38,822 nt of DNA from assembly GCA_016182425.1 (NCBI GenBank), contig JACPGP010000024.1, positions 1 through 38,822 on the forward strand. Reading direction: 5' to 3'. Below the pieces are notes generated by a model that saw only the letters and a list, made by a program, of their open reading frames with translations, was not told the DNA's origin and did no database searches. Made by a program: the position numbers and the translations under genes. Numbering within the stretch: the first letter of the stretch is position 1; every line of letters begins with the position of its first letter. Of this stretch, positions 13,875 through 32,702 are shown piece after piece. The DNA is from Candidatus Levyibacteriota bacterium. GTDB lineage: Bacteria > Patescibacteriota > Microgenomatia > Levybacterales > UBA12049.

Positions 13875-16124
13875 TTATTTACGTTTACCCCATCGTTCCT
13901 GGGAAATCCTGATCAATTTGTCACGCTGTTGGTTTTTGCAATCAAGTGGAGGTAGGGAGGTGGCATAGAAGGGCTGAGTGGTCTCGGAATCAATACTTAG
14001 TTTGCAGATCATTTGGTATTTACCGATTTTGACAAGGTCATCGGCGGGGAATTTGGCGCCAAATTCTTTCTGAAGAATGTAAGCATCTTGGTTACCAACT
14101 ACAAAAGAAAGAATGGAACCGACGTTGCCAAAGATGGCGTCCTGTATTGTTCGGTCAAGCTGACTCATGTATTGGTTGGCGACGATAAGATTCAGTTTAA
14201 ACTTGCGTGCCTCAGAGAGAATTTTAATGAAGGCTTCGGTGGCAAAGTTTTGAAACTCATCGACGTAGAGATAAAAGTCAGCCCGATCGGATTGGGCTTG
14301 AAATACTCGATTCATGGCTGATAACTGGATTTTGGTAATCAACATGGCGCCAAGAAGGGCGGAGTTGTCTTCGCCTAATTTTCCAGTGGAAAGATCAGCA
14401 ATAAGAATTTTTTTCTGATCCATGATTTCTTGAATATTGATCTTTGAAACTGGATGAGCAATGGTGTTACGGATATTAGTAGAGGCGATAAATTGCCCAA
14501 CTTTGTTCAAGATAGGAGCGATGGCTTCATTTTGAAATTTGTCATCCATACGATCGTATTCATTAAGCCAGAAGTTTTTGAGAGTTTGATTCTGGAGACC
14601 GGCGACGACTTTTTGACGATAGGCCTTGTGAGTTAGAATCTCAACTATGTGGGTCATATCACTGCCGGGAGTATTGACCAGGGTTAGGACGGCGTTGCGA
14701 AGAATATGTTCAAGGCGCGGCCCCCAAGAGATATTGCCATAAAGTTTTTTGAAAATGGAGATGACCCCAGAAGCGACCAATTCTTTTTGAGAGTCATTTT
14801 GGGCTTCAAGAACGTTTAGCGGATAGACATATTCAGGGTCGGCAGGGTTGAAATAGCAACAATCATTGACCCGGGAGGAGGGGATGTAGTCGAGAATGGT
14901 GCTACACAAATCGCCATGGGGGTCGATAATAGCGATACCACGGCCTTTGCGGATATCATCAATAGCCATGTTGGCGATAAGGGTGGTTTTTCCAGTACCG
15001 GATTTTCCGATGATGTAGGTGTGGCGACGGCGGTCTTCACCTTCTTTGATGCCAAAAATAGAATCTTTGTTGCGGAATTCGGCTTTGGCAAAAAAAGTAG
15101 TTGATTGTTTTTGCTCCTCAGTAGCACCGTCGGCAATGGGGAGGTTTTCGGGTGGGTCGGCATAAAGTTTTTTGCCCCAGGCGATGTTTGGTAGCTTGGT
15201 TAGTTGGTTGGGAAAATGCCAAAGGACAGACATTTCTTCGGTGTTGAGAATTTGAGTATTAATATTTATTTCACGAGCAAGAATAGAGCGGAGGATTTTT
15301 TTCTTGGTAAAAAATCCTGGTGTGATAGAACGAATGAAGTTGCCCCGAGGACTGGTGTAGATACCAAAGGAAGATGAAACTGAGGCGATGAGCCCGGGAT
15401 TATTACTTAAAAGATTAATCTGACTTAAGAGGCCTGGAAATTGAATTTTGGTTTCAAAGACCATTTTATCGGGATGGGCTTGGCGGAAGCCTTTTTCTTT
15501 GTCGACCACGATACCATTTTGAATGATCGAGATAATTGACCCTTGCCAGTTTTTGGGGGCATTGCCAATTAGAATTTGGAAGAGGAAAAAATCAGAGGGG
15601 TTGTTGCTGCGAGAGAGAGGGGCGAGAACGGAACTAAGCGGATCAGTATCCTTGAAATCTTTGGAGGTTTTGAGGGGATAGGAGTAGGGGCGAGCTAAGG
15701 CTAGTTGGGAAAAATGGATATTTTGGCTGGTCAACGAATTTTGGCGATCCTTGCTACCTTCGGGCTCCGCTTTAGCTTGGTCGCGTTCGCTGTGGTTGCT
15801 AAAATTGTTGACTGCGCCATTATTTATAATTTTTGCTAAATAATCCTCTGGTTCTTTGATAACGGCGTAGGGGTACTGGGCGAGAATTTGGGAGCGGAAA
15901 AAATCGGCTGAGTCAGTGGGAGTGGCGATAAGAAAGTGGACTTGAGAATCAAAAAGGGCAATTTCTAGCGAAGCGATGGTGGGCTTTTTTCCGATTAATT
16001 TGTCCCAAAAAGATTGGCGGGTAAATTGGGTAAAGTTGGAAAGTAGAGAGGACATTGACTCGAGAGTGGTCTCATTGTCTTGGGGAAGGCGGATTTCGAT
16101 GAGCTTGAACACGGGGTCGGACAT
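13875..16124 (-). CDS. VirD4/TraG/HerA-like P-loop ATPase (type IV secretion/conjugative transfer family)
   Basis: YIIGKSGTGKTTLIANMAIDDIRKGRGIAIIDPHGDLCSTIL, FYLYVDEFQNFATEAFIKILSEARKFKLNLIVANQ. Start MSDPVFKLIEIR preferred. Confidence 0.85.
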   Translation of the reverse strand: MSDPVFKLIEIRLPQDNETTLESMSSLLSNFTQFTRQSFWDKLIGKKPTIASLEIALFDSQVHFLIATPTDSADFFRSQILAQYPYAVIKEPEDYLAKIINNGAVNNFSNHSERDQAKAEPEGSKDRQNSLTSQNIHFSQLALARPYSYPLKTSKDFKDTDPLSSVLAPLSRSNNPSDFFLFQILIGNAPKNWQGSIISIIQNGIVVDKEKGFRQAHPDKMVFETKIQFPGLLSQINLLSNNPGLIASVSSSFGIYTSPRGNFIRSITPGFFTKKKILRSILAREININTQILNTEEMSVLWHFPNQLTKLPNIAWGKKLYADPPENLPIADGATEEQKQSTTFFAKAEFRNKDSIFGIKEGEDRRRHTYIIGKSGTGKTTLIANMAIDDIRKGRGIAIIDPHGDLCSTILDYIPSSRVNDCCYFNPADPEYVYPLNVLEAQNDSQKELVASGVISIFKKLYGNISWGPRLEHILRNAVLTLVNTPGSDMTHIVEILTHKAYRQKVVAGLQNQTLKNFWLNEYDRMDDKFQNEAIAPILNKVGQFIASTNIRNTIAHPVSKINIQEIMDQKKILIADLSTGKLGEDNSALLGAMLITKIQLSAMNRVFQAQSDRADFYLYVDEFQNFATEAFIKILSEARKFKLNLIVANQYMSQLDRTIQDAIFGNVGSILSFVVGNQDAYILQKEFGAKFPADDLVKIGKYQMICKLSIDSETTQPFYATSLPPLDCKNQQRDKLIRISQERWGKRK

Positions 16125-16248
16125 AGAAAGATTATAGAGGAAAAAAACGATAAACGTAATCCGTGACAAGGGGAATGATCATTATAAATCTTTTTGAGAA
16201 TAGATGACAGGGATTTATTTTAATAGTATAGAGATATAGGATGGAGTA

Positions 16249-17072: not shown

Positions 17073-17348
17073 ATGGTAGTTGATATTGATGAATTAATCT
17101 GGGATCAGGTTAATACAGAACATATTAAAAAACATGAAGTTAATCAGGCTGAGCTATATCAAGCTTGTAGGATTCAATTAAAAGTATTGTTGGTCAAGAA
17201 AAATAGGATATTATTGATCGGCAAGACAAAAACTAATCGATTATTGTCGATTGTTTTGGATTTGGTTGATAACAATAATTATTATGTTGTTTCGGCTAGG
17301 GATAGTAGCCGAAAAGAGAGGAGGCTGGTGAATGAAGAAATTAATTAA
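17073..17348 (+). CDS. BrnT-like type II toxin
   Basis: IWDQVNTEHIKKHEVNQAEL...ILLIGKTKTNRLLSIVLDL...YYVVSARDSSRKERR matches the BrnT pattern. Confidence 0.75.
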   Translation: MVVDIDELIWDQVNTEHIKKHEVNQAELYQACRIQLKVLLVKKNRILLIGKTKTNRLLSIVLDLVDNNNYYVVSARDSSRKERRLVNEEIN

Positions 17349-17607
17349 AAGTAAAATACCAGATTTTAAAAATTATGCAGAAGAAGCAAAGTTTTGGGAT
17401 ACCCATGATTTTACTGATTTTTTGGACGAGGCGAAAGAAATAAAATTAAACTTTAAGGCGAAAGAGCCAAAGGAAGATGCAGTAATTATCAGAATTCGAC
17501 GACCAATGAAGAAAAAGATGCAGGAGTTGGCTGATGAAATGGGACTAAGCTTATCGACGATGATTAGGATGTGGATGATAGAGAAGCTAAAGACGTTGTC
17601 GAAGTAA
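17332..17607 (+). CDS. BrnA/CopG-like ribbon-helix-helix antitoxin
   Basis: FWDTHDFTDFLDEAKEIKL...VIIRIRRPMKKKMQELADEMGLSLSTMIRMWMIEKL; overlaps toxin by 17 nt. Confidence 0.78.
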   Translation: MKKLIKSKIPDFKNYAEEAKFWDTHDFTDFLDEAKEIKLNFKAKEPKEDAVIIRIRRPMKKKMQELADEMGLSLSTMIRMWMIEKLKTLSK

Positions 17608-17788: not shown

Positions 17789-17800
17789 TGTTCTTTAACA
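17789..17800 (+). promoter_or_regulatory. boxA-like antitermination sequence
   Basis: TGTTCTTTAACA matches rrn boxA consensus TGYTCTTTAACA; upstream of the 18049 operon with no rRNA nearby. Position approximate to a few nt. Confidence 0.45.
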
Positions 17801-17868
17801 ACCTGCAATATATCAAAGAAAAATCCCAAATTCTAAATCCTAAATTCTAAAAAAATAGGAGGACTTTT

Positions 17869-18048: not shown

Positions 18049-18399
18049 ATGAAACTTAATGTTTCCCAAGTTGGCGCTTTGACTGTTGCACCTATAATGT
18101 CCTGGATTCCATGCCCAGACAATGCAACTTGTCGCGGCCACAAAATCCACGATGGATCTGCCCGTGGATGGCATTGTAGTAACTCGGACTGTCGGTATGG
18201 CGTGGCGGAAAATAGCCTTGTTTCCATCATGATGCCAACATCAATTACGCATGTGCAGATAGTTTCCGTTGCCCCGGCTTTTGCACCAATGATGATGGCG
18301 GCTCGGAAGTGCCCTGATTGTGGTGCTTCAGTTTACAAAGATCCTCACGGCAAGGGAAAAGCCCTACGCTGTAAAAAGTGTGGCTGGAGGAGTAACTAA
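18049..18399 (+). CDS. Cys-rich zinc-ribbon hypothetical protein
   Basis: C-terminal KCPDCGASVYKDPHGKGKALRCKKCGW zinc ribbon; N-terminal IPCPDNATCRGH...GWHCSNSDC cluster. Confidence 0.7.
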   Translation: MKLNVSQVGALTVAPIMSWIPCPDNATCRGHKIHDGSARGWHCSNSDCRYGVAENSLVSIMMPTSITHVQIVSVAPAFAPMMMAARKCPDCGASVYKDPHGKGKALRCKKCGWRSN

Positions 18400-18737: not shown

Positions 18738-18903
18738 TCGCCGAGCTTCGGCGAGCCACAGCAAAACAAAACAAGATTCCGGTAGTCCGGACCAAAACGA
18801 TATATTGCAGGTTTTAAAAATAATTGATAATTAATAGTTAAGAGTGAATAGTTAAATATTCATTAGGTTGCAAAAGTTTTTTAATAATTTATATTATTAG
18901 AAA

Positions 18904-19155
18904 ATGACAGGAAGAAAAGTTCAAAAAGAAGCAGAAGCAGTACAACCAGGGTTTGATGTGATGTTGGTGCAAGAGAAACTACCTGAACCAGAAAATGAAT
19001 TGTTGAAGTTGATGGCTCGTGAGGGTGTGAAAGGCAAGAAGAGAGCGACCCAAACAACTGTGGCACAAAGAGTGGCTATGAATGCATTTAAACCAAGAAT
19101 TGTAATCCATACTGGGACACCAGTACTTGGAGGAGCGCAGGTGGATAAGGATTAA
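18904..19155 (+). CDS. hypothetical protein (83 aa)
   Basis: Continuous ORF; no recognised family. Confidence 0.5.
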   Translation: MTGRKVQKEAEAVQPGFDVMLVQEKLPEPENELLKLMAREGVKGKKRATQTTVAQRVAMNAFKPRIVIHTGTPVLGGAQVDKD

Positions 19156-19787
19156 GATAAGTAGGTTTTTCCCAGCCGAAGTGATTCGGAAATAAGAAAC
19201 TTTTTGACTTCATCCCAAGAGATATCAGCCAGCATTTCGGGCATAGCGTCAGCATCTGCGTCTTCAAAATAGGTCATGCTCTTGATAAGGGTATATTTGT
19301 TTTCTTCCAGAACGTGGTACTTTTTGTTGTATAGCTCAAACATTTCCTCGATTGATATATTTTTTTGGTGACAAATTGTATATAGATCGATGAAATCTTT
19401 TTTGGTATTTCGATCGGATATAGCAACTAATTTCATAGCAATGATGTCGTCGATACTAGCAATTTTGATGCCCTGATAATCGTCAGTTGGATTCAATAGG
19501 GGATATTCGTATCGGAAATAACTAAATTTAACATTATTAAATTGGCCGATTAGTGTAGTTCCGGCAGCGGTATCAATATCAAACTTACCAGTAGTTTTTA
19601 GTGAATTGGCTAAAATAATAGGATCAAATTTTAAAGGTGAAAAAAAGTCAAAGTCGATTGAAATACGGTGACCTAAACGTAAGGCGAGTGAGGTACCACC
19701 AGCAAGATAGGCATTATTTAACAATTCACCTTGGCCTAAAATGTCCAGAGCTGTTTTCGCATTTGGCGATAAGACTGTTTCAAACAT
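19152..19787 (-). CDS. AbiEii/AbiGii-like nucleotidyltransferase toxin
   Basis: AYLAGGTSLALRLGHRISIDFDFFSP and DIIAMKLVAISDRNTKKDFIDLYTI motifs; start MFETVLSPN preferred. Confidence 0.85.
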   Translation of the reverse strand: MFETVLSPNAKTALDILGQGELLNNAYLAGGTSLALRLGHRISIDFDFFSPLKFDPIILANSLKTTGKFDIDTAAGTTLIGQFNNVKFSYFRYEYPLLNPTDDYQGIKIASIDDIIAMKLVAISDRNTKKDFIDLYTICHQKNISIEEMFELYNKKYHVLEENKYTLIKSMTYFEDADADAMPEMLADISWDEVKKFLISESLRLGKTYLS

Positions 19788-20032
19788 GCTACCTCCGTAA
19801 GGGGAATATTTAAATAATTTGCCCAAAAAGTACCGGATTTGGCAGAGAAATCCCGTCGCGATTTTAGTGTTTCGACAACTTTATTTATTGAATAATTATG
19901 TAATACCCAGTTAGCAGCGACTAGGTCTCCTTTGTCTAAAAGTCGATTAATTACGTACTGATAATCGCCCTCGAAATCAATTTTATTGATATCGACATCC
20001 CAGAAATATTTGGATAAATTAGCTTTATTCAT
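19736..20032 (-). CDS. AbiE-partner antitoxin-like protein (DUF6922-like N-terminus)
   Basis: LSKYFWDVDINKIDFEGDYQYVINRLLDKGDLVAANWVLHNYS; overlaps the AbiEii-like start. Confidence 0.65.
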   Translation of the reverse strand: MNKANLSKYFWDVDINKIDFEGDYQYVINRLLDKGDLVAANWVLHNYSINKVVETLKSRRDFSAKSGTFWANYLNIPLTEVACLKQSYRQMRKQLWTF

Positions 20033-20300: not shown

Positions 20301-21452
20301 ATGGACATGCTGAAACGGGCAATAGAAGATAGTATAAATACGTATTTATCAGGCGAAGATACGAAGATATTGTTTGTATGGGGTCCGCGACGTTCAGGAA
20401 AGACGACATTGATTGATAAGTTGTCTAGAGCACTGAAGGTAACAAAATATAACTTTGACTTGGCTTCAGATAGGGACAAGTTTATTCCTCGTCGAGAAAT
20501 ATTGGAAAGAATTGTAGCTGATAATAGGGTTATCTTAATAGATGAAGTTCAAAGCTATCCTGAAGCCACAGTAATATTAAAAATACTTCATGATGAGTTT
20601 AAGATAAAAATCATTGCCACTGGTAGCTCGGAACTGAGACAAAAGTCAGGCAAAGAGTTTGACACTTTGGCTGGTAGATTTAGTGAGATTTACTGCTTGC
20701 CATTATCTGTAACCGAAATTGTAGCCAACGAAAAACCAAAGATGTCTGACGAGTTGGGTTTTTACAAACAAACAATGATAAATTCCCAAATATGGGGTGT
20801 TTATCCGGAAATATTTACCAAAGCTAATTTGGCGGAAAATGAAAGAATTGATCTCTTGCAAAAAGTTTTGGATACGTATGTTCTTAAAGATGTAGTAGAC
20901 ATATATGAATTGAAGAACCAAAAGCTAGCTAAAGATATTTTGACCAAGATTGCCTTACAGCTTGGACAGGAGGTTTCAATCCGAGAAATCGCTGATTCTT
21001 TGGGAGCATATCCGGCGACTGTATCAAACTATATTGAAATATTTATCAAAAATTATATTTTGATAGAGTTACCATCGTTTAAAACAAATATCAGAAAAGC
21101 TGTGTCGGAAAACCGTAAGCTATATTTTTATGATTTGGGGATTAGAAACATTTTGGTTAAAGATTTTCGGGAAATGGAACTACGACCTGACAAGGGTGGA
21201 GTGTTTGAAAACTTTATTATTTCCGAACTGGAAAAGTTGCGGAGACTAAAAAATGTTAAAGTGAATTTTTATTTTTATCGGGAATATGGAGGTAAAGAAA
21301 TTGATCTGATTATTGAGGATTATAAAAAAAATTATGTGACAGTGGAGATAAAAACGAATAAAGGTAATGCAAATAAGATCTTTCCAATAGAAAGCAAATT
21401 GGAAATGATAACGAGTCAAAATTATTTTGAGAAATTGAACAGTATCTTATAA
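20301..21452 (+). CDS. AAA_14/DUF4143 ATPase
   Basis: LFVWGPRRSGKTTLIDKL, ILIDEVQSYPEATVILKILHD, IIATGSSEL; C-terminal DUF4143-like FENFIISELEKL...EIDLIIED. Confidence 0.9.
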   Translation: MDMLKRAIEDSINTYLSGEDTKILFVWGPRRSGKTTLIDKLSRALKVTKYNFDLASDRDKFIPRREILERIVADNRVILIDEVQSYPEATVILKILHDEFKIKIIATGSSELRQKSGKEFDTLAGRFSEIYCLPLSVTEIVANEKPKMSDELGFYKQTMINSQIWGVYPEIFTKANLAENERIDLLQKVLDTYVLKDVVDIYELKNQKLAKDILTKIALQLGQEVSIREIADSLGAYPATVSNYIEIFIKNYILIELPSFKTNIRKAVSENRKLYFYDLGIRNILVKDFREMELRPDKGGVFENFIISELEKLRRLKNVKVNFYFYREYGGKEIDLIIEDYKKNYVTVEIKTNKGNANKIFPIESKLEMITSQNYFEKLNSIL

Positions 21453-21589: not shown

Positions 21590-21873
21590 GGTTTTTGAGG
21601 TTGGCGTATACCTTGAACATTGCGTTTGAGGAAAAAGCTTGCCGAGAAAGCACGTTAACAATCTGAATACGAAAATAAGGGCTTCTAAAATAATGGTTTG
21701 AAAAGAGTTATTTTTGAGGGGCCGAAAGATATCTACCACTGTTTTTTGGTGATAAGTATCGACGGTTTCCCTCAAGAAAATACTAGTTTGGGAAATCGAC
21801 TGGCTGCATAGTCGGGTAACATACCCGTTTTTTACTTTTTCTGTCGTGCCGAATCAGATCAAATGGAGGTCCT

Positions 21874-22758
21874 ATGAGTAGGCGAATGTTGTGGTTGAAA
21901 GCGTTAGGGGTCCTTTACCTCCTAATGTCTGTGTTTGGCAGTGTATTTCCAGTAAAGGCGCAAGGCGAAGGGTTTTTGTGGCCGTATGTTGGGGTGTCTG
22001 GCAGGGATTGGTATCCGACCCAAGGTTGCCATAGTGATGGCTGGGGAGGTGCTGTTGGTGGCATTCCAAGTACCTGCGCAGTCGATTTTACTCGCTACTC
22101 AGGTGGTGAGAAAGTCAATTGTGGTGAACCAGCCATGGCTCCAGTTTCAGGAGACTTTACGAATTTTGGAGCTGACGCTGGAGGAAGTACTACGGCGGTG
22201 ATTAAAGGCCAAGCCTATTGGGTGTTTTTTGTGCACGGAGATTTTGTCCCTAGCGGATATTTGAAGCAGGGCGATATTTTCGGCTATGAAAATACTCATG
22301 GTAACAGCTCTGCTTGTCACTGGCACATGTCTGTGTTTGATGTAAATCAGAGTAGCTGGGTAAATCCAAATACTTTGCAGACAGTTGGCGTGCCAGCGGG
22401 GGCAGGACAAGTTGTCAACCTCGATGTTGCCAAAGTCCAGTTCCAGATGCAAACATGGACAGTGGTTGGCCCGGATTACCTGGATGGACTTATTCCGCCC
22501 ACGGTGACGTCCGTAACGGCTCCTGATCCAAATAAGGTCCAGATTGATGTCGAAAATCCAATTGATGGCTCTGAGTCGTCTTGGACATTTGACCAGTCTA
22601 AACTTCCCTATCAAGTTGATACGGGTAAAGTTGAACAATTAGTTGAGGAGAAGAAAGACAATTTCCTCACCTGGATTGTGGTCGCTATTGTTGCGTATAT
22701 GTTGTTCAAAAAAAGTCCGAGTCGTCACCGTGAAGATGATGATGAAGAAGAGGAGTAA
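21874..22758 (+). CDS. secreted, C-terminally anchored M23-like (degenerate LytM) protein
   Basis: Signal peptide; CAVDFTRYSGGEKVNCGEPAMAPVSG; ENTHGNSSACHWHMSVFDV (HxH); C-terminal TM then DDDEEEE tail; SD GGAGGT. Confidence 0.65.
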   Translation: MSRRMLWLKALGVLYLLMSVFGSVFPVKAQGEGFLWPYVGVSGRDWYPTQGCHSDGWGGAVGGIPSTCAVDFTRYSGGEKVNCGEPAMAPVSGDFTNFGADAGGSTTAVIKGQAYWVFFVHGDFVPSGYLKQGDIFGYENTHGNSSACHWHMSVFDVNQSSWVNPNTLQTVGVPAGAGQVVNLDVAKVQFQMQTWTVVGPDYLDGLIPPTVTSVTAPDPNKVQIDVENPIDGSESSWTFDQSKLPYQVDTGKVEQLVEEKKDNFLTWIVVAIVAYMLFKKSPSRHREDDDEEEE

Positions 22759-22763
22759 AAAAA

Positions 22764-24362
22764 ATGAACGCGTATTTTGATAATGTGTCAAAGTATTTCC
22801 TTCCTAAGGTCGTTAGCTCTTTCCCTGTCGGATGGGAAGACTGGATGGAAAATAATCCCCAAAGTGAACTGGCGATTGAGGTGATGTACCTTGGTGCAGC
22901 CCTGAGTCCAAGTGACCAACACAGATTTGAACGCGAGTTGAAAATGGCTATGGGTGGCAAAGCACAAGCTGTGCCTCCGCCCCCGCCTCAACAAGCACAA
23001 GCTGCACCCGCACAAGCTGTGCCTCCGCCCCCGCCTCAACAAGCACAAGCTGCACCCGCACAAGCTGTGCCTCCGCCCCCGCCTCAACAGGTAAAACCGG
23101 CGGAAGCTGAAAAAGGTCCTGGGTTCATGGCGGCAGTTCGAGAAAAGGCTGGGAACGCTTTGGGTGGTGTGAAAGATTTCGCGTCTCGCCCTATTTTTGG
23201 TGGGATCCCGTTGTGGATCGTCGTCGTTGGCGCTTTGCTGCTCTTTAACTCGGGAATCCTGAATGGGCTTGGTGATTTGCTTCCCAAAGGATCGAGTGGC
23301 GGTACTTCAACTGGTTTGACTGGCAGTCCGAGCGTGTGGATTAAGACGGCGGCTGGAGTGACGGTTCCGATCAATAAGATGCCATTTCCCAAGATTCCGT
23401 TTGCCGATATGGAAATGCGCAAGCTGATTGCGGCTCTATTGCTGTTGGTCAACCCGATTTTGGTTGCTTTCGACAATGCCGCAGCACGCCCAAACCAGGA
23501 ACCAAATCACAAAAGCAACATTGGTTTCGTGCTGTACTTTGTCGCAGCGATGTTGTGGGGTTATTGGGCGGTGATCATTGCTGGTTTTTCCTTGTTTTTG
23601 ACCTTAAGGAGTCGGGAGGGCAATACATCTTCGATTGGAAACCAGTTTTTCCTGCTGATTTTAGGTTTGTGGATTTGGTTCTCCAAGTTAGCCCCGATTG
23701 TAAATGGCTACCTGGACGGACTGCACAACCCGATGATTAGCTGGCTGCCCACATTGCTGCGCTACTTGTTTAATGGCGAGAACCTCAGACCTCTGGCGGC
23801 GATTGCCTTGGTTGGTTTCCTCATCTATTCAGTGCTGAGCGATATGTATGACAGCTCGACACTGATTACTTTGATGGGCTTCCAGCTGGCATGGTTCCTT
23901 GGAACTGGCGTGTTTCTCTTCTGGGAAAAAATGCCAATGCTTTACCAGATGCCGTTCTTCTATTTCCAGTTTGCGCTGGTAGTGATTGCGATTTTTATCG
24001 AACAGAAACAGGTTGGTTTGTTGAACTTGCCGAAGGGTATCCTGATTTTGTTTGGGGTGATGTACTTTGTCTCCCTTGGAATCCGCGATTATTTTGACAT
24101 TGATCCAAACGGGACTACTGTCTGGCGCTACATGACTCAGCCGGTTATCTTCCTGTACATGATCGTCCTCTGGCTGTCCTATGCCTTTGGCAAAGCTGTC
24201 TCAGGAGGGTCGAAAGTGTTCGCTGGGTTGTACCAGACGCTGGGAAGCTGGTTTGGTCAGTTGGTGCCGATTGCTGGACTTCAAGTACCGTCAGACGGAT
24301 TGATTACCCTCAACCTGGTTTTGGCTGGCGTACTGGTGTTTACTCAAGTTATTTTATATTGA
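22764..24362 (+). CDS. polytopic membrane protein with Pro/Gln/Ala repeat linker
   Basis: Soluble N-terminus, AQAVPPPPPQQAQAAP repeats, then many hydrophobic segments. Confidence 0.75.
   Translation: MNAYFDNVSKYFLPKVVSSFPVGWEDWMENNPQSELAIEVMYLGAALSPSDQHRFERELKMAMGGKAQAVPPPPPQQAQAAPAQAVPPPPPQQAQAAPAQAVPPPPPQQVKPAEAEKGPGFMAAVREKAGNALGGVKDFASRPIFGGIPLWIVVVGALLLFNSGILNGLGDLLPKGSSGGTSTGLTGSPSVWIKTAAGVTVPINKMPFPKIPFADMEMRKLIAALLLLVNPILVAFDNAAARPNQEPNHKSNIGFVLYFVAAMLWGYWAVIIAGFSLFLTLRSREGNTSSIGNQFFLLILGLWIWFSKLAPIVNGYLDGLHNPMISWLPTLLRYLFNGENLRPLAAIALVGFLIYSVLSDMYDSSTLITLMGFQLAWFLGTGVFLFWEKMPMLYQMPFFYFQFALVVIAIFIEQKQVGLLNLPKGILILFGVMYFVSLGIRDYFDIDPNGTTVWRYMTQPVIFLYMIVLWLSYAFGKAVSGGSKVFAGLYQTLGSWFGQLVPIAGLQVPSDGLITLNLVLAGVLVFTQVILY
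22962..23090 (+). repeat. 48-bp tandem repeat, about 2.7 copies
   Basis: Unit GCACAAGCTGTGCCTCCGCCCCCGCCTCAACAAGCACAAGCTGCACCC at 22962, 23010 and partial at 23058. Confidence 0.95.
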
Positions 24363-24379
24363 CCTAAAGGAGGGTCGGT

Positions 24380-25063
24380 ATGTCGAAGAAAAAGTCTACC
24401 GACCCTACGGTTGGTATCGGAACGATTGCACTGGTGGTGATTGTGCTGGGTCTGTACTCGGGAAATCTGAAAGTTTCCGTGCCGCAGGCTTCTACTCAAT
24501 TGCCACCAACAAACTCCGTAGCCACAAGCAGTGTTCTTGAGGCTGCCAACGGAGCTGACGTCCCCAACCCACTTTCTGAACGGGTTGACGCAAAACAACT
24601 ACCCCCTTCACATCAAGGTGGTGAAGTTATATACAATGGCGGTGTACTTAGGGGTTTCCCTGACGCTGGTGTTGAAACTTCAGTAATTCCTGAAAGCGCC
24701 AAGAAAGTATCAGCAATTTTTAGCTGGTACTGGCCAAATCTGGGAGGAACAAACTGCAGTAGTTTCCGCAGTGATCTTCCTGATCGGGCCTTTAGTTTTC
24801 CTGATGCCGACCACTCAAGTGGTTGGTGTTGGTCGAGAATGAGCTCTGGGGAGAATTGGGAATACTACGTTGGTAGAGCAGTCGCTTGCCCCCAAGAATG
24901 GCCGTTTGGAACAAAGGTGTATGCCTTTGGACGTGAATGGCTGTGCTTGGATCATGGCGGAGCGATTGTGACTGAAAATGGTGAGTCTTGGATAGATTTT
25001 TTGACCCCAAGTCCACCGATGAGCTATCGAACCCATTTTGATGTTTGGGTGCTTTACCCTTAG
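24380..25063 (+). CDS. anchored 3D-domain / double-psi beta-barrel-like exoprotein
   Basis: N-terminal TM; VACPQEWPFGTKVYAFGREWLCLDHGGAIVTENGESWIDFL resembles 3D-domain proteins; SD GGAGGG. Confidence 0.6.
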   Translation: MSKKKSTDPTVGIGTIALVVIVLGLYSGNLKVSVPQASTQLPPTNSVATSSVLEAANGADVPNPLSERVDAKQLPPSHQGGEVIYNGGVLRGFPDAGVETSVIPESAKKVSAIFSWYWPNLGGTNCSSFRSDLPDRAFSFPDADHSSGWCWSRMSSGENWEYYVGRAVACPQEWPFGTKVYAFGREWLCLDHGGAIVTENGESWIDFLTPSPPMSYRTHFDVWVLYP

Positions 25064-25077
25064 AAAGAGGATTACCA

Positions 25078-27266
25078 TGGCTACAATTCCATATCGAGAA
25101 ACAATAATTGAATATTTCAACAAGTTGAACGTGTCGTATCAAATTTCGTCAACGGCGAAGGTTGATGTCGATTTTCCAGCTGCGTTCGTGGGGGCAATAA
25201 TTGCGCAGAAGGGAACCGTGATCTGGTTGGAAAATGAACATGCTTGGGCGGTGCAATTTGGCAGTGAACCTGCGAAGTTGTTAACTCAGCCCAAAGCACA
25301 ATCGGCGCCGGTGCCTGCAAAAGCAAAAGCAGTTGCCGCGGCTGTCGTGAAACCAGTTCGAAAGGTTTCGAAAAAGTCGTCTTTTGGAATTCCCCAGTTT
25401 GGATTGTTGGCGGCGGTGCTGTTTTTTGCCCTCTCTGGCGGAAAGCTGAACCTTCCTGGAGCATCAACACCTGACGATCCTAATGCTTACCAATCCATGG
25501 CTACAGCCAGTGCCACCCCGGAACTCGTGGGTGATCCTGATGCATTTTGCAGTCAGGAACTGGGCAAGACCGTAACTGGTGTGAAGGTTTTTGAAGTTAC
25601 TGAGAGCGGTTTGACTGGCACAACGAAGGATTTATACCCTCAGGCTGAGATGGCGACATATTTTTATGCCAAAGAAGTTGAGCGAGGGATGCCATTTCTG
25701 ACCGTAAGTTGGTTGTTTCAGAGCGCCGATGCGAACGCAGAATTTGAAAAAGCGATTGCTCTGGATACTGCCAAGATGGACCCCAACGTTGACTGCGTAG
25801 ATCAGAGTTGCAGTAAGTTGTGGACGTCCTCGATTAACCTCGCCAATGATTACAGAATTGAGACGTTTTATAACGAGAACCGTGATCTGACTGACCCGCT
25901 CTATTACAAAAACGTTCCCGCGGAAATGTTTACTGCTTTCCGCGAATGGATCGTAGAAGTGGTCGCGGCCGGAAAGAATGGTACATCGTATCCTCGGTGT
26001 ATTGAAATTCCGGCGGTTAAGGATATGGCTGAGGTTTCCAAAGAAGCAAAAGACTGGCTATTAAACAATCAGCCTCAGCGCGGGAACGCACAACTGCCCT
26101 CATCAGGATCAAAAGGTCCTCGACCGACCGATCAGCCGCTGATCATTACCGCAACCCCGACCTTGGGGTATGTTGGGTCAAATGCTCCGGCATTTGATAA
26201 GTACGCGGCGGTAGTTGGTGCAACAGATGCCCAAACGGCATTTACAGCCGATCCTGACCAGCAGTGCTATGTCAACCTGACTGTGAACTGGCCCGACTTT
26301 ACCATGACCTCAAGTTTGAATGAGGTGATTCGCATTTTGGGCCCGAGCTCGTGGACTTTTCGTTCCATAGGGGACGGGACATTTCAGGCTCGGAGTTATG
26401 AGACTGATGCGAACGGCTATGCCGCTTGTGCCAAGGTGTTGAACCTTGAGACGGAATACTCGGCAGGCACATGGAGGATTGGCAACACTGGAGTGGTGGC
26501 GACTTTGCATTGGGAGAACTACGGTCTGCCCGACGAAATAAAAGTAGGTAGTGCGTTTATTTTCCCAGTCTACTCGGACCAAGTTGTCGCCGAGAGCGAG
26601 AGTTACGACATCATCCCGACAAGTACTCCGTCGGTCAGTTCAGCTTCGATCTACGATCTGTATGATGTTATGATCAGCAAAGGCTGGACAGAACTGGTAT
26701 CAACGGGATGCCCATTCGAACCTATCAATGGGTCGGTGACTACAAGCAGTGCGTTTACCGTTGATTTCGGTTACAACGATGTCCTCGCCGGGCAAAAGTA
26801 CTCGAAGGATGGGTGTGACCTTTTTGGGGGGTTGCATTTTACGACTTACGACCCGGGGCAAGGGGATTCGCAAGTATTATATGGCGGTAAGTTATATGTC
26901 TACCCTTATACCAAAGTCCAGTACCAACCCTCTCCCACTCCTGGTGGACCAACCTATCCACCGGACGGATCGCAGATTAGTCTCGCAGATCTATTAAAAT
27001 ACGAGACTGGGTATGGTGAAAAGGCAAACTCTGTGGGTTGTAAGAATGGGTCGATCCCTGGTTGGCCGAATCATGTTCCTGTCAAGACCAATGTTTATAA
27101 CTATTTGGTGGATTTCAGCGCAATTGCAGGACAAACCAATGGGTTGTGTGTTTATGACCCCGTAAAGATGACTACTTCCTCAGTCCTGTACTGGAGCATT
27201 TACGAGTACCAGGGTTACGGAAGTATAATCCAGTATGGTGGGTATTGGTTTGCTCCATTCAAATAA
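25078..27266 (+). CDS. single-TM large exoprotein with cytoplasmic N-terminal domain
   Basis: MATIPYRETIIEYFNKL..., Lys/Ala/Pro linker, one TM (FGLLAAVLFFALSGG), about 600-aa exported Cys-containing part; start revised from 25038. Confidence 0.7.
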
Positions 27267-27273
27267 ATTTTAG

Positions 27274-27320
27274 GTTGGTCGCAGGGCTCATAGCTTCATC
27301 GTAGCCACCCTGCTACCAAC
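27274..27320 (+). repeat. intercistronic stem-loop
   Basis: GTTGGTcGCAGGG ... CCCTGCtACCAAC with inner GGCT...AGCC. Confidence 0.6.
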
Positions 27321-27337
27321 AAGGAAGGAAGTAAGGC

Positions 27338-28618
27338 ATGAAAAGTTCAACTTTGAAAATGATCATGGTGTTAATCGTCGGTTGGTATTTAGTGACCAAT
27401 GGAGTAATTTCAAAAAACGATAACGCGATCGATCCAACTTCTACCCCAGCCGAGGCTGGTTCAAATGCGGCGGCGGTCCAAACTGCTGTTGAAAATGTGG
27501 CACAAATGACGCCTACCCCAGGATCTGCTGGTGCAGGCCAGATGGAAACAGCCGTCCCGACCCAAACCATCATCGTCGACCTTGGTGATGCCAATAAGAT
27601 GATAGAACTTATGCAAGGGAAAATGACCCGAGAAATGGTCAACTGGCTAATAACGGCACGATTGTCTACGGGTGGTGGAGCTCATGCTTGCTTCGTCGCT
27701 TGGTATGATGAGCCGTTTGATGATATCACTGTACCTGCTGGTCACCCTGGTATTCCTATGTGGCAGGTCATTGATGGTGGAAACGTCATCACAGCCGAAA
27801 AAATGGGTCTTGGCGGATGCAAGACGACGATAAAACTGGGCGACTTGCTTTCTGGTATCCCGCCGAGTTTTTTGCAAGACCCCGCCAACTATCAATTAAA
27901 CGAGGTTCCTTATACCTGGACAACTGGTACAACCACCATTACCGAAAGTCGGGTGGAAGTCACCGTGACAGTGCCCTATGCTTTTGGTGGACTGGTAGTT
28001 CAGCCTGGTAACGAGGTAACTCTCCAGACAGTATTGCCAAACGAAGCGGCTGCCTCAGTTCAGGACTTCTGGAAATATGTACTATCCCTTGGGGGAGATG
28101 TTTCCAAGGTCTGGGTTAAGTACGGGGCACTCGACAATTCCGCTGACAATCTGGCAATATTGGATGTCATTGCTCCGATTACGGACTGGCGCACAGGGGC
28201 TCGTTCGACCGATCACCTTGACGCACTGCGCGAACTGACCATGCAATCGGTATTGCCAGGGAGTCCTGCTTATGAAACAATCCGCAAGATCGTTTGCGAA
28301 AGTGCGGACGAGGCAGGGTTCAAAGATATTAGTGGTTTTGATCAAAGCGGCGCCCCAGTTACACTGGATAAGTGCACCGTTAAGGTGAACTTAGTTCCGA
28401 TCAACCCGAATGAACCCAATACCTGGTACCAACTGGATTCGTTGCCTCAGACCTGGTCCACGACTCCTGAGCAAATTGCCCAGCTCCGACCCGTAATTAT
28501 TCCGGCAGATTTTGAAGCTTATAACTTCGACAATGCGTACGTTTTATATGCGCCGGAAATAAACCAATCTAACTGGTGGAGTCAAGTACCTGAAGCTTTG
28601 CGTCAGTACGCTCCGTAA
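27338..28618 (+). CDS. secreted/anchored hypothetical exoprotein
   Basis: N-terminal hydrophobic anchor MKSSTLKMIMVLIVGWYLV then Thr/Pro/Ala linker and large extracytoplasmic region. Confidence 0.7.
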   Translation: MKSSTLKMIMVLIVGWYLVTNGVISKNDNAIDPTSTPAEAGSNAAAVQTAVENVAQMTPTPGSAGAGQMETAVPTQTIIVDLGDANKMIELMQGKMTREMVNWLITARLSTGGGAHACFVAWYDEPFDDITVPAGHPGIPMWQVIDGGNVITAEKMGLGGCKTTIKLGDLLSGIPPSFLQDPANYQLNEVPYTWTTGTTTITESRVEVTVTVPYAFGGLVVQPGNEVTLQTVLPNEAAASVQDFWKYVLSLGGDVSKVWVKYGALDNSADNLAILDVIAPITDWRTGARSTDHLDALRELTMQSVLPGSPAYETIRKIVCESADEAGFKDISGFDQSGAPVTLDKCTVKVNLVPINPNEPNTWYQLDSLPQTWSTTPEQIAQLRPVIIPADFEAYNFDNAYVLYAPEINQSNWWSQVPEALRQYAP

Positions 28619-28700
28619 AAAATTTCGTATTCAGATACACTCTCGCTGTATTCAGTCAACAATTTTTGTTTTGCTGGGTACAGCTTGGGGGCAATTCTTG

Positions 28701-28759
28701 CCTGTTGTGGTTCGTGTCTGGCTTCCCCTTTGGGAAGCCAGGCAAACGAACGCAACAGG
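28701..28759. repeat. long stem-loop at end of the 21874-28618 cassette
   Basis: CCTGTTGTGGTTCGTGTCTGGCTTCCC pairs imperfectly with GGGAAGCCAGGCAAACGAACGCAACAGG; no U-tract. Confidence 0.7.
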
Positions 28760-29146
28760 TGAGAAATAAAAAATTTATTGATCAAATATATTTTAATAAT
28801 GTTTTTGATGAGTAAATTCTGAAGATGAAGTAAGGTGGAATGTGGTATGCACAACACTTATCTTAGGATTGTAAATTTATTGATGGTGGTCTGAAGAATT
28901 GAAAGCTAATAGTAAACCAGTATTGTATGCAACTGATCTTGATGCAGTAAGGAGTATTGAGGTGGCACCGTTGGTGCCTAGAGTGGTAGGAAGAGTTGGA
29001 ATGCAGATAGGAGTAAAATGTCAGGACAAGCTGTGAGGGAATTTGGAGAAGTGAGAAATCCTTCGACCCACCAGGGTAGACAGGCAAGCTCAGGACGAGT
29101 GAGGCCGATGCCTAAGATTCGGGGGTTGATTGGGGAGTAGGAAAGG

Positions 29147-30307
29147 TTAAATTAGGTCAATCCAGTTTTTATTGACGATATTGGCGGAGATAGGGCAGGT
29201 TTTTGAATTGGAAATGAGATAACTTTGATTGATTTGTTTACCAAAGATTTTTTGAGCTTTGACTAAGGATGAAGCGTGAATGGGGCGAATTGTGGCAGTG
29301 GATTTTATTTCGACCAGATCAACTTGTCCGTTGTTTTCCAGAATGAGGTCGACTTCAAGTCCATCTCGGGTGCGGAGGAAATACATTGATGGTTTTTGGC
29401 CATGATGATAGTACTGTTTCCAGTAATCAATGATAATAAAAGTCTCAAAAAGTGAACCAAAATAAGGACTGTTGGTAAGTCCGGCGCTAGAGGTAATTCC
29501 CAAAAGGTGACTGACTAAACCAGTGTCGGTAAAATAAATCTTGGGACTTTTGATTACTCTTTTGCCAATATTTTGGAAATAGGGATAAAGTAAAAAGATC
29601 TGATAACTAGCTTCGAGAAGAGAAAGCCAACGTTTAGCAGTAGGCACGGAAACACCGATTTCTCGAGCAATTGAACTTAGGTCTAAGATTTGACCAGTAC
29701 GAACAGCAACTGATTTTAAGAAAATTTGAAATAAATTTAAATCACCTACTTGACTCAGGTTTCTAATGTCTCTTTCAAGAAAAGTTCTGATATATGAAGA
29801 TTGCCACAGATTGTGATCAATTTTATGATTGTTGGCAACTTCAGGATAATTACCCCGTAAAATAATGCCAGACAAATCGATAGATTTTTTATTGGTACCG
29901 ATGAGTTGTTCTGATAGTGAAAAGGGGAGTAAAGAGAGAATGGCAGCGCGTCCGGCAAGGGATTGGTTGACATGGTGCATTAGAGAAAAATTTTGAGAGC
30001 CGGTGAGAATCCAGCGTCCAGGCTGACGGTGGTCATCAATATCGGTTTTGATATAGGAAAGTAACTCGGGAACATACTGAATTTCGTCGATAATGGCTGG
30101 TTTCTTGATGTTGTTTAAAAAAGTGTGGGGGTCACTTTTTGCTAAAAGTTGGATGTCAGGGTTTTCGAGATTATGATAATCGTATTTTTTGCTAAAAGTA
30201 TTTTTAAGAAGGGTGGTTTTGCCTGATTGACGGGGACCAGTCAAAATTACAGCGGGAAATGTTTTGATTATTTTTTTGATGATATTGGTAATATCTCGGG
30301 GTTTCAT
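29147..30307 (-). CDS. AAA_14/DUF4143 ATPase
   Basis: VILTGPRQSGKTTLLKNTF, AIIDEIQYVPELLSYIKTDID, WILTGSQNFSLM, C-terminal FETFIIIDYWKQ...LEVDLILENNGQVDLVEIKS. Confidence 0.93.
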   Translation of the reverse strand: MKPRDITNIIKKIIKTFPAVILTGPRQSGKTTLLKNTFSKKYDYHNLENPDIQLLAKSDPHTFLNNIKKPAIIDEIQYVPELLSYIKTDIDDHRQPGRWILTGSQNFSLMHHVNQSLAGRAAILSLLPFSLSEQLIGTNKKSIDLSGIILRGNYPEVANNHKIDHNLWQSSYIRTFLERDIRNLSQVGDLNLFQIFLKSVAVRTGQILDLSSIAREIGVSVPTAKRWLSLLEASYQIFLLYPYFQNIGKRVIKSPKIYFTDTGLVSHLLGITSSAGLTNSPYFGSLFETFIIIDYWKQYYHHGQKPSMYFLRTRDGLEVDLILENNGQVDLVEIKSTATIRPIHASSLVKAQKIFGKQINQSYLISNSKTCPISANIVNKNWIDLI

Positions 30308-30621
30308 CAGAGTATTATATATCCTGCAAGTTTAATATTCAATGTTAAAATGGTGGGGTTGAATTGGGGATTGGTTGAGGGTAAGGATTGGAGCTTGACT
30401 ACAATAAACCGGAAATCAGGAGCAATAACTTTGGCTAATAAGTTAACAAAGGAGAATTGATGGTGTAGTAGGTTTATCCTATAATCTTGACAAAAGGGAT
30501 GGTTTTTGATAGGATTATTAAAATAATCAAAGTACGCATCTGCTGTGTATGTATTGATTGTTTTTGGCAACGCCCGATGTGAATTGTTCGGGAAGTACAT
30601 TAACAGTCAAAAAGAGTTGTA

Positions 30622-30688
30622 GAGGTTGGGTCAAACCTGCCCTGTAATATGTACAGGGTAAATTTGACTCAACCTCAAAATTTTGAGG
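30622..30688 (+). ncRNA. structured leader with mutually exclusive hairpins
   Basis: GAGGTTGGGTCAAA (30622-30635) / TTTGACTCAACCTC (30663-30676), inner CCCTGTA/TACAGGG; overlapping palindrome CCTCAAAATTTTGAGG (30673-30688). Confidence 0.55.
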
Positions 30689-30727
30689 ATTTTAAACCTG
30701 TCTGATGGACATAAAAAGGAGAATGCC

Positions 30728-31369
30728 ATGATTGAAATACCGGTTTTCGGAACAAATTGTAAAGTACTGAATCATATGTATACATATTTAGTGGTATCGG
30801 TGGTTTTGGCAATTGAGTTGTTCGTTGAAAGTGTGGGATTTAGTTTGAAGCTGGTTGAATTTGTGATCCTGCTGATTTCAGCAGTTGCGCTTATTTACAG
30901 TGAGAGGAGCCCGATTCATAAAGGCGTTAAGGTCATGTGGATTGCGATTGTTTGGTTGAGCTTGTATTTCGGTTATTACATGAGTGGGATTGTAGTAATG
31001 ACTTTTTATGTCTCATTGGGAATTGGTGAAATCATCAACGTGTCACGAGATTACAAGAAGTACTCGAAGATGGCCATTAAAGACTGGGTAATGCTGGTAA
31101 TTGCAGTATCTGCTGTGTTGGTAAAGACCTTGCTTGATAGTTGGTCTATGTACCAAGGTGGAGAATTTATTGCTGCAATACTTATTATTGCGATGGCCTG
31201 GGTCACCATAGTTGGGAAGGATGTTTTTAATCGAAACATTCAAATAACACTGCTGATTCTGTCATTGCCGTTTGTGGGTTCACCGCTTTTTCTATTTGCG
31301 GTCATTGTCACTGTTGCGGTCATCAATGCATCGATACGTTTTGCTCACCATGTTGGTGATATCCAATAA
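30728..31369 (+). CDS. multi-pass membrane protein, unknown function
   Basis: Several hydrophobic segments; SD AAGGAG before ATG 30728; start revised from 30683. Confidence 0.75.
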   Translation: MIEIPVFGTNCKVLNHMYTYLVVSVVLAIELFVESVGFSLKLVEFVILLISAVALIYSERSPIHKGVKVMWIAIVWLSLYFGYYMSGIVVMTFYVSLGIGEIINVSRDYKKYSKMAIKDWVMLVIAVSAVLVKTLLDSWSMYQGGEFIAAILIIAMAWVTIVGKDVFNRNIQITLLILSLPFVGSPLFLFAVIVTVAVINASIRFAHHVGDIQ

Positions 31370-31371
31370 CT

Positions 31372-31420
31372 TTTCATGGAAAGGTACGGGTGAGGACTTT
31401 GTCCTCACCCGCCCATGAAA
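31372..31420. repeat. stem-loop at end of 30728 gene
   Basis: TTTCATGG/CCATGAAA outer stem plus perfect CGGGTGAGGAC-TTT-GTCCTCACCCG. Confidence 0.75.
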
Positions 31421-31532
31421 CCACAACACAACAACTCTTTTTGACTGAAATTTATAAATAGTTGGGTTAATAATTTGGGAAGTACTTTTTGATTTAGCAT
31501 TTGGTTGGAGATCAAGTTAGTATAAATTGGGC

Positions 31533-31568: not shown

Positions 31569-32702
31569 ATGTATATTCAAAGAGAGGTTGAGTCGGCAAT
31601 TAAAAAAAGTCTGTTTAAAGGTAAAATAGTGATTGTTTATGGCGCCAGGCAGGTTGGTAAAACAACTTTGGTAAAAAAAATGGCGGAGAGTTTTGGTAGA
31701 CCTTATGGTTATTTAAATTGTGACGAGCTGGATATTTTAAGTCAATTTCAGAGAGCGGGGAACTCGGTAGCGTTAAGGCAAATGTTGGGACAGAATCAGT
31801 TGATAGTTATTGATGAAGCACAGAGAGTCAAAAATATTGGTCTGAAGTTGAAACTATTGATAGATAATTATCCCGAGATTCAACTGTTGGTGACCGGTTC
31901 TTCTTCTTTTGATTTGGCAAATGAGGTGAGTGAACCGCTGACTGGCAGAAGTGAAGAATTTTGGTTGTTCCCTTTTTCAGTTAGGGAGCTGTGGAAGGAA
32001 AGTGACAGGATAACGCGGGAAAGGCAGCTCGAAAAATGGCTGATTTACGGAAGTTATCCAGGGGTATGGAACCTGACTTCCGAAGAGGAAAGAGCGGTGA
32101 AAGTAAAGCAGTTGGCGGCAAACTATTTGTATAAAGATGTCATAAAGTTTAATGAAATAAAAAACTCTGAACTGGTACTGAAACTGTTGCAAGCCTTAGC
32201 ACTCCAAATAGGTAATGAAGTATCCTATAACGAGTTGGCGAAGACAATTGAGGTTAGTAAACAAACTGTGGCATCGTACGTTGAGTTATTGGAGAAGGCG
32301 TTTGTGATATTTGCTATTAGACCATTTTCGGGGAATATGAGACAAGCTTTGAATAAGAAGAGGAAAATATATTTTTTGGATGTTGGGATTCGGAACGCAA
32401 TTATAAACAACCTAAACCCAATGTCGATTCGTGATGATGGAGGGAGGCTGTGGGAGAACTTTGTCGTAGCTGAAAAGTATAAACAACAATTGGGACTGGG
32501 GTACAAGACCAATCTTTATTTTTGGAGAACGTATCAGGGTCAAGAAGTTGATTTGGTGGAAGACATTGGGGGAAAGTTGATTGGCTGGGAGATAAAACTT
32601 AAGGGAAAGAGAAACAAACAACCTAAGGACTGGGGGACTTATGAAAATTCAAGCTGGAAGGTGGTTGATAAAGAAAATTTTTGGGAATCGGTAAATTTCT
32701 AA
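31569..32702 (+). CDS. AAA_14/DUF4143 ATPase
   Basis: IVYGARQVGKTTLVKKM, LIVIDEAQRVKNIGLKLKLLID, LLVTGSSSFDLANEVSEPLTGR; C-terminal LWENFVVAEKYKQ...GQEVDLVED. Confidence 0.92.
   Translation: MYIQREVESAIKKSLFKGKIVIVYGARQVGKTTLVKKMAESFGRPYGYLNCDELDILSQFQRAGNSVALRQMLGQNQLIVIDEAQRVKNIGLKLKLLIDNYPEIQLLVTGSSSFDLANEVSEPLTGRSEEFWLFPFSVRELWKESDRITRERQLEKWLIYGSYPGVWNLTSEEERAVKVKQLAANYLYKDVIKFNEIKNSELVLKLLQALALQIGNEVSYNELAKTIEVSKQTVASYVELLEKAFVIFAIRPFSGNMRQALNKKRKIYFLDVGIRNAIINNLNPMSIRDDGGRLWENFVVAEKYKQQLGLGYKTNLYFWRTYQGQEVDLVEDIGGKLIGWEIKLKGKRNKQPKDWGTYENSSWKVVDKENFWESVNF

What the first reader, a model, noticed from the sequence alone, without database searches (positions are those of the whole stretch)
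21874..28618. Candidate new five-gene envelope/secretion cassette
Five consecutive same-strand genes with short gaps and strong SD sites, every product predicted exported or membrane-embedded: degenerate M23-like anchored protein, polytopic protein with PPPPPQQ repeats, 3D/DPBB-like protein, a large bitopic exoprotein with a small cytoplasmic domain, and a secreted exoprotein. Two putative wall-remodelling domains beside a multi-TM core suggest an apparatus crossing or remodelling the cell envelope (attachment, DNA/protein transfer, or predation/symbiosis). No ATPase lies inside the cassette. I recognise no described system with this order. Function is inference.
Basis: partly seen in the sequence, partly recalled or inferred. 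Interest (0 to 1): 0.82.

Follow-up and report, generated by a model that had tools for sequence, protein, structure and literature searches.

The report
Acquired wall-opening gene cassette
A tiny-genome bacterium carries a foreign-looking block of five genes for membrane and secreted proteins, two of which look like enzymes that cut the cell wall, and a distant relative has those two enzymes fused into one protein; the other three proteins have no known relatives, so what the block builds or attacks is not yet known.

Summary
In detail: five same-strand genes (21874-28618; gaps 5, 17, 13 and 71 nt), all predicted exported or membrane-bound, in an island of 48-50% G+C against about 40% outside. 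Corrections: gene D starts at ATG 25077 (729 aa). Gene A is not catalytically degenerate: its M23 zinc/catalytic set (H53, D71, H121, H149xH151) is complete.
Gene C carries a 3D/MltA-type lytic-transglycosylase domain of an undescribed subfamily (profile match 98%, E 1e-14, to proteins passing Pfam 3D; fold search returns MltA). It keeps the catalytic Asp and two of the three defining Asp. The subfamily is common in uncultured phages, including one complete 7.6-kb filamentous phage where it overlaps the Zot/pI gene.
In another genome of the same class (G240), the M23 and C-type domains are fused as M23-TM-cytoplasmic loop-TM-3D, exactly joining the topologies of A and C: real evidence that they work together.
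The full five-gene order was found nowhere else. B, D and E are orphans, and C is absent from 81 order-mates, so recent acquisition is likely. Best reading: an acquired module in which two membrane-tethered enzymes open peptidoglycan for a B/D/E membrane-exoprotein assembly. A new secretion machine is not shown.

The parts
21813..21827 (+). terminator-like hairpin plus T-run just upstream of the cassette, separating it from the upstream AAA gene
   Evidence: number of terminator-like sites overall is at chance level; sequence
21874..22758 (+). Gene A: signal peptide, M23-type (LytM) metallo-endopeptidase domain (about residues 34-170) with complete H53/D71/H121/H149xH151 set, C-terminal TM 262-278 and acidic cytoplasmic tail
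   Evidence: phi29 gp13 3csq, E 0.044; PF01551 E 0.12, below cut-off; alignment to two real M23 domains
22764..24362 (+). Gene B: cytoplasmic N-terminus, PPPPPQQ repeats, about 10 TM helices; orphan
   Evidence: no relatives
24380..25063 (+). Gene C: N-terminal TM, about 85-residue linker, 3D/MltA-like double-psi beta-barrel domain (residues about 101-227), Asp191 and catalytic-equivalent Asp206
25077..27266 (+). Gene D: about 100-residue cytoplasmic domain, one TM (about 102-120), about 600-residue Cys-containing exodomain; orphan
   Evidence: no relatives
27338..28618 (+). Gene E: N-terminal TM, Thr/Pro linker, exodomain with an internal duplication (residues 125-216 against 295-392)
   Evidence: score 82 against 42.7 +/- 7.1 in 2000 shuffles, maximum 78
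28640..28761 (+). Two long GC-rich hairpins right after gene E, single copy in the genome; probable transcript end or a folded DNA element carried with the cassette
   Evidence: window 28640-28780: z -9.9, 0 of 200 shuffles; no second copy in own genome, nothing convincing in 127 relatives

Best explanation
A laterally acquired cell-envelope module. A (M23 endopeptidase) and C (3D/MltA-type lytic transglycosylase), both tethered to the membrane with catalytic domains outside, cut the peptide cross-links and the glycan strands respectively, and so open the peptidoglycan at one spot. The opening lets the polytopic protein B and the anchored exoproteins D and E assemble into, or reach through, the wall. 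Shown by computation: gene order, topologies, domain identities of A (weaker) and C (stronger), complete predicted active sites, A-C functional link by fusion, foreign composition and absence from order-mates. Inferred: that the enzymes are active, that they act on the cell's own wall, and that B, D and E form a complex.
For: Operon-like spacing and ribosome sites. C: 44% identity to a phage protein; E 3e-38 and 3e-34 in two same-class genomes; hhalign 98.3%, E 1.3e-14 to 3D proteins that pass Pfam PF06725; AlphaFold pLDDT 82 with MltA as 4 of the 5 best PDB matches, though at E 0.1-0.2, and 3D/lytic-transglycosylase proteins as viral matches at E 3e-4 to 3e-3. D191/D206 sit where YuiC D151/D162 and MltA D297/D308 sit; D162 and D308 are the catalytic residues (PMC4499186). 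A: M23 set conserved. G240 fusion M23-TM-loop (13 K/R, 2 D/E)-TM-3D puts both enzymes outside. A second wall association: VanW-type domain fused to a C-like domain in G588. Foreign origin: G+C and codon shift and C absent in 81 order-mates.
Against: A is below Pfam's M23 cut-off and its single-sequence model failed (pLDDT 41). C lacks the first of the three Asp of the 3D motif (Cys170 in that position), so activity is unproven. The five-gene order is seen once. B, D and E have no relatives, so their membership of one machine rests on adjacency only. No energy source is in the cassette.
Confidence: 0.45

Rival explanations
1. Remnant of a virus or other mobile element: the five genes are the wall-crossing or egress part of an integrated phage-like element (tailed or filamentous) whose replication and ATPase genes are lost or encoded elsewhere.
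For: C relatives are overwhelmingly viral: about 27 IMG/VR contigs, several with terminase or portal genes, and a filamentous phage with 123-nt terminal overlap, Zot/pI, G2P-type Rep and the C-like gene overlapping Zot. Foreign G+C, cassette of 6.7 kb, hairpins at its end. Inoviruses are reported in CPR hosts (PMC6813254).
Against: No Rep, integrase, Zot, coat or terminase gene in or beside the cassette; A, B and D have no viral relatives; the G240 relative lies among chromosomal genes near nusG-rplK-rplA.
Confidence: 0.2
2. Weapon or tool against another cell: A and C, with exoproteins D and E as adhesins, act on the wall of the cell on which this bacterium lives.
For: Two complementary wall enzymes displayed outside a small-genome bacterium; MltA-like enzymes are used on prey walls by Bdellovibrio (PMC10127604, title and abstract); large Cys- and Thr/Pro-rich exoproteins.
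Against: Both enzymes are membrane-tethered rather than released; no host-binding domain is recognised; no experimental data.
Confidence: 0.15
3. Accessory of the Patescibacteria type IV secretion system: A and C do the VirB1 job, B is a divergent VirB6 and D a divergent VirB8-like bitopic protein, powered by VirB4/T4CP encoded elsewhere.
For: Recognisable VirB6 is scarce in Patescibacteria class Microgenomatia, VirB8 is nearly confined to another class, and VirB1-like enzymes often lie away from virB4; monoderm VirB1 pairs a lytic transglycosylase with a peptidase (PMC12102498). A TrwB/TraG-like ATPase lies 5.7 kb away on the other strand.
Against: No Pfam, NCBIfam or PHROG match of B or D to any T4SS family; C is absent from order-mates, whereas the T4SS is described as widespread; no pilin or VirB3 recognised next to it.
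Confidence: 0.1
4. Assembly chimera: the cassette belongs to another organism and was joined to this contig by mistake.
For: Sharp G+C step, single occurrence in the order, draft of 38 contigs.
Against: Both borders lie inside one contig with low-G+C genes on both sides; cassette codon usage is not far outside the range of resident genes; C relatives exist in two other same-class genomes.
Confidence: 0.07

Closest known systems
3D domain / MltA-YuiC (Sps) lytic transglycosylases (PF06725; PDB 2ae0, 2pic)
   Same: double-psi beta-barrel prediction, conserved C-x-D-x-G-x-x-I and W-x-D motifs with the catalytic Asp and the second Asp
   Different: first Asp replaced by Cys, insertion between the two Asp (4 residues in gene C), extra N-terminal SxYWPxxGGxNC motif and four Cys; no Pfam model matches
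M23/LytM endopeptidases (PF01551; phi29 gp13, 3csq)
   Same: HxH, catalytic His, upstream His and Asp
   Different: below Pfam cut-off; inserted Cys; C-terminal membrane anchor with acidic cytoplasmic tail
VirB1-type two-domain hydrolases of monoderm type IV secretion (e.g. pIP501 TraG, PrgK)
   Same: pairing of a lytic transglycosylase with a peptidase, next to a membrane complex
   Different: different enzyme folds (3D plus M23 instead of SLT plus CHAP); split over two genes here; no T4SS genes beside them
G240 chromosomal locus L016:7177-9682 (same class, other family)
   Same: M23 and C-type domains, both outside by the positive-inside rule, followed by a TM-anchored exoprotein gene
   Different: one fused polypeptide (an assembly gap lies inside the M23 part); no B, D or E relatives

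Membership tests
3D/MltA-like lytic transglycosylase (gene C) | sequence-profile match to the family | tested here: met
   hhalign 98.3%, E 1.3e-14 against 3D proteins, several of which pass PF06725; C itself has no direct Pfam hit
3D/MltA-like lytic transglycosylase (gene C) | double-psi beta-barrel fold | tested here: met
   model pLDDT 82; MltA is 4 of the top 5 PDB hits but at E 0.11-0.24; 3D proteins in BFVD at E 3e-4 to 3e-3
3D/MltA-like lytic transglycosylase (gene C) | catalytic Asp (MltA D308, YuiC D162) | tested here: met
   D206, invariant in the 7- and 8-sequence alignments, aligned; residue roles from PMC4499186
3D/MltA-like lytic transglycosylase (gene C) | all three Asp that give the domain its name | tested here: not met
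   two of three present; Cys170 lies where the first Asp is expected by the motif (inference from the alignment); so C is filed as a 3D-related subfamily, not a canonical 3D domain
M23 endopeptidase (gene A) | curated profile score | tested here: not met
   PF01551 E 0.12, 13.1 bits against a cut-off of 28.7
M23 endopeptidase (gene A) | zinc and catalytic residues | tested here: met
   H53, D71, H121, H149xH151; the position of H53 is the least certain
M23 endopeptidase (gene A) | LytM fold | tested here: inconclusive
   single-sequence model pLDDT 41
Type IV secretion system | VirB4/T4CP ATPase in the cluster | tested here: not met
   none in 21874-28618; TraG/HerA-like gene at 13875-16169 on the - strand
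Type IV secretion system | VirB3, VirB6 and VirB8 homologues | tested here: not met
   no Pfam, NCBIfam or PHROG match for B or D; extreme divergence not excluded
Filamentous phage (Inoviridae) | Zot/pI ATPase, Rep, small coat protein | tested here: not met
   absent in the cassette; present in the related L029 phage (Zot and Rep matched, coat by appearance only)
Functional secretion or transfer apparatus | substrate passage across the envelope | not testable with these tools
   needs experiment

The most novel reading that the evidence does not exclude
The five genes encode a previously undescribed envelope-spanning apparatus: B is the membrane channel, D and E form the extracellular conduit or adhesin, and A and C open the wall, powered by an ATPase in trans.
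Probability: 0.12. Interest if true: 0.85.

Novelty: new variant of a known kind. Interest (0 to 1): 0.45.

Why it matters
How small-genome epibiotic bacteria get structures through their own wall, or a neighbour's, is open, and their VirB1/VirB6/VirB8 equivalents are largely unidentified in some classes (PMC12102498). The A-C fusion gives a concrete, testable pair of wall enzymes. The C subfamily is a phage-borne wall enzyme that no Pfam model sees, present in tailed phages, a complete filamentous phage and a few bacterial chromosomes.

Tried and rejected
B, D and A were each searched in viral contigs, and B in genome contigs, phages and plasmids: nothing. B hit in G131: only shared membrane helices. 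A hit in G419: an ordinary M23 protein with unrelated neighbours. M23 hit elsewhere in the own genome: lies in rpoB. Genome-contig scan with the C alignment found none, but its two patterns were narrow. G159 C relative has no M23 or B/D/E beside it. D tandem repeats looked real by eye but failed shuffling; E duplication passed. Structure of A without an alignment failed. Profile search of the PDB with the C alignment: none. Defence-system models: no cassette hit. Weak matches in G732 and other genomes of the phylum are short partial 3D-like stretches and were not pursued, except the G588 VanW fusion. Downstream hairpins: no Rfam family.

Full report
What is there. The window lies in a 797-kb, 38-contig draft genome. 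Five + strand genes with gaps of 5, 17, 13 and 71 nt and good ribosome sites occupy 21874-28618. D should start at ATG 25077, not the TTG at 25038. The block is 48-50% G+C; the 2-kb windows outside it are 35-44%. Around it lie BrnT/CopG and AbiEii-type toxin-antitoxin genes and three AAA/DUF4143 genes, then genes that read as rpsB-tsf-frr (by inspection), so the cassette sits in a cargo region.

Gene C. C has no Pfam, NCBIfam or direct PDB match. A guess at its motif (CPxEWP[FY]GT, recalled from memory and then tested) found a phage protein 44% identical over 119 aligned positions. With that pair as a profile, two same-class genomes rang at E 3e-38 and 3e-34, and further rounds gave 27 viral loci, the weaker ones ordinary 3D proteins. 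The alignment shows SxYWPxxGGxNC ... C ... GxxW ... CP ... T ... C-x-D-x-G-x-x-I ... D-x-L. Profile comparison with 3D-domain phage proteins gave 98.3%, E 1.3e-14. The AlphaFold model (pLDDT 82) retrieves MltA as four of the five best PDB matches, at weak E-values of 0.11-0.24, and 3D and lytic-transglycosylase proteins in the viral library at E 3e-4 to 3e-3. Asp206 corresponds to the catalytic Asp of MltA and YuiC and Asp191 to the second Asp; the first Asp is replaced by Cys (PMC4499186). C is therefore a 3D-related putative lytic transglycosylase of a subfamily that no model library tried here recognises.

Gene A. The sequence scores below the M23 cut-off, but aligned to two ordinary M23 domains every metal and catalytic position is filled (H53, D71, H121, H149, H151). 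So 'degenerate' applies to the sequence, not to the predicted active site. The fold could not be confirmed.

A and C belong together. In G240 (same class, different family) an M23 domain ending in the HxH motif, a TM helix, a 72-residue loop with 13 K/R and 2 D/E, a second TM helix and a C-type domain follow in one open frame. The first half of the M23 domain lies before a 24-N assembly gap. By the positive-inside rule both enzymes face outward. This is A's C-terminal anchor joined to C's N-terminal anchor. In G588 a C-like domain is fused to a VanW-like domain. The G240 fusion is the strongest single piece of evidence beyond the window.

Genes B, D, E. No relatives were found in 148 relatives (B), 389 phylum genomes and 73 family genomes (D), phages, plasmids, viral contigs or genome contigs, and B was absent from the genomes and viral records that carry C relatives. 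E was compared only with the fetched loci. The genome-contig and viral scans need near-exact 8-residue matches, so distant relatives are not excluded. E contains an internal duplication.

Origin. C was found in no other genome of the order (82 searched). Its relatives are mostly viral: tailed-phage contigs with terminase or portal genes, and one filamentous phage of about 7.6 kb with terminal overlap, Zot/pI and G2P-like Rep, in which the C-like gene overlaps Zot. Their hosts were not determined. With the composition step this points to lateral acquisition of at least C. Right after E two long GC-rich hairpins fold 9.9 sd below shuffles and are single copy.

How it most likely works (inference). 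A cuts peptide bonds and C cuts glycan strands next to the membrane; B holds the assembly in the membrane; D and E extend outward. This works like the VirB1 step of monoderm type IV secretion, where a lytic transglycosylase and a peptidase are paired (PMC12102498), but with different enzyme folds and no T4SS genes beside it, so it is not filed as a T4SS. Remnant phage egress module, action on a host wall, T4SS accessory and chimeric assembly remain open in that order.

Verdict. A real, foreign-looking, five-gene envelope cassette with one well-supported and one moderately supported wall enzyme and a fusion-backed link between them; as a five-gene system it is a single observation with three orphans. 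Interest 0.45.

Noticed in passing
window 28640-28780: Two long hairpins directly after gene E (z -9.9), GC-rich, single copy in the genome, no Rfam family; unexplained (transcript end, or a folded DNA element).
   Followed up: partly
L029 (IMGVR_UViG_3300009614_000096): Complete circular filamentous phage (123-nt terminal overlap) with Zot/pI, G2P-type Rep and a 3D-type wall enzyme gene overlapping Zot: a filamentous phage carrying its own putative lytic transglycosylase.
   Followed up: partly
window 20301-21452, 29147-30307, 31569-32702: Three divergent AAA/DUF4143 ATPase genes (PADLOC candidate PDC-S01) within 13 kb flanking the cassette.
   Followed up: no
window 17073-17607 and 19152-20032: BrnT/CopG-type and AbiEii/DUF6922-type toxin-antitoxin genes upstream of the cassette.
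   Followed up: no
window 30604-30631 / 31420-31447 and 17794-17814 / 18799-18819: Inverted repeats (28 nt, 82%; 21 nt, 90%) bracketing the small TM gene 30683-31369 and the zinc-ribbon gene 18049-18399: possible small mobile units.
   Followed up: no
L031:3768-5618 (-): VanW-like domain fused to a divergent C-type domain in a genome of the same phylum.
   Followed up: partly
window 13875-16169 (-): TraG/HerA-like ATPase with a strong match to phrog_5156 (E 3e-57).
   Followed up: no
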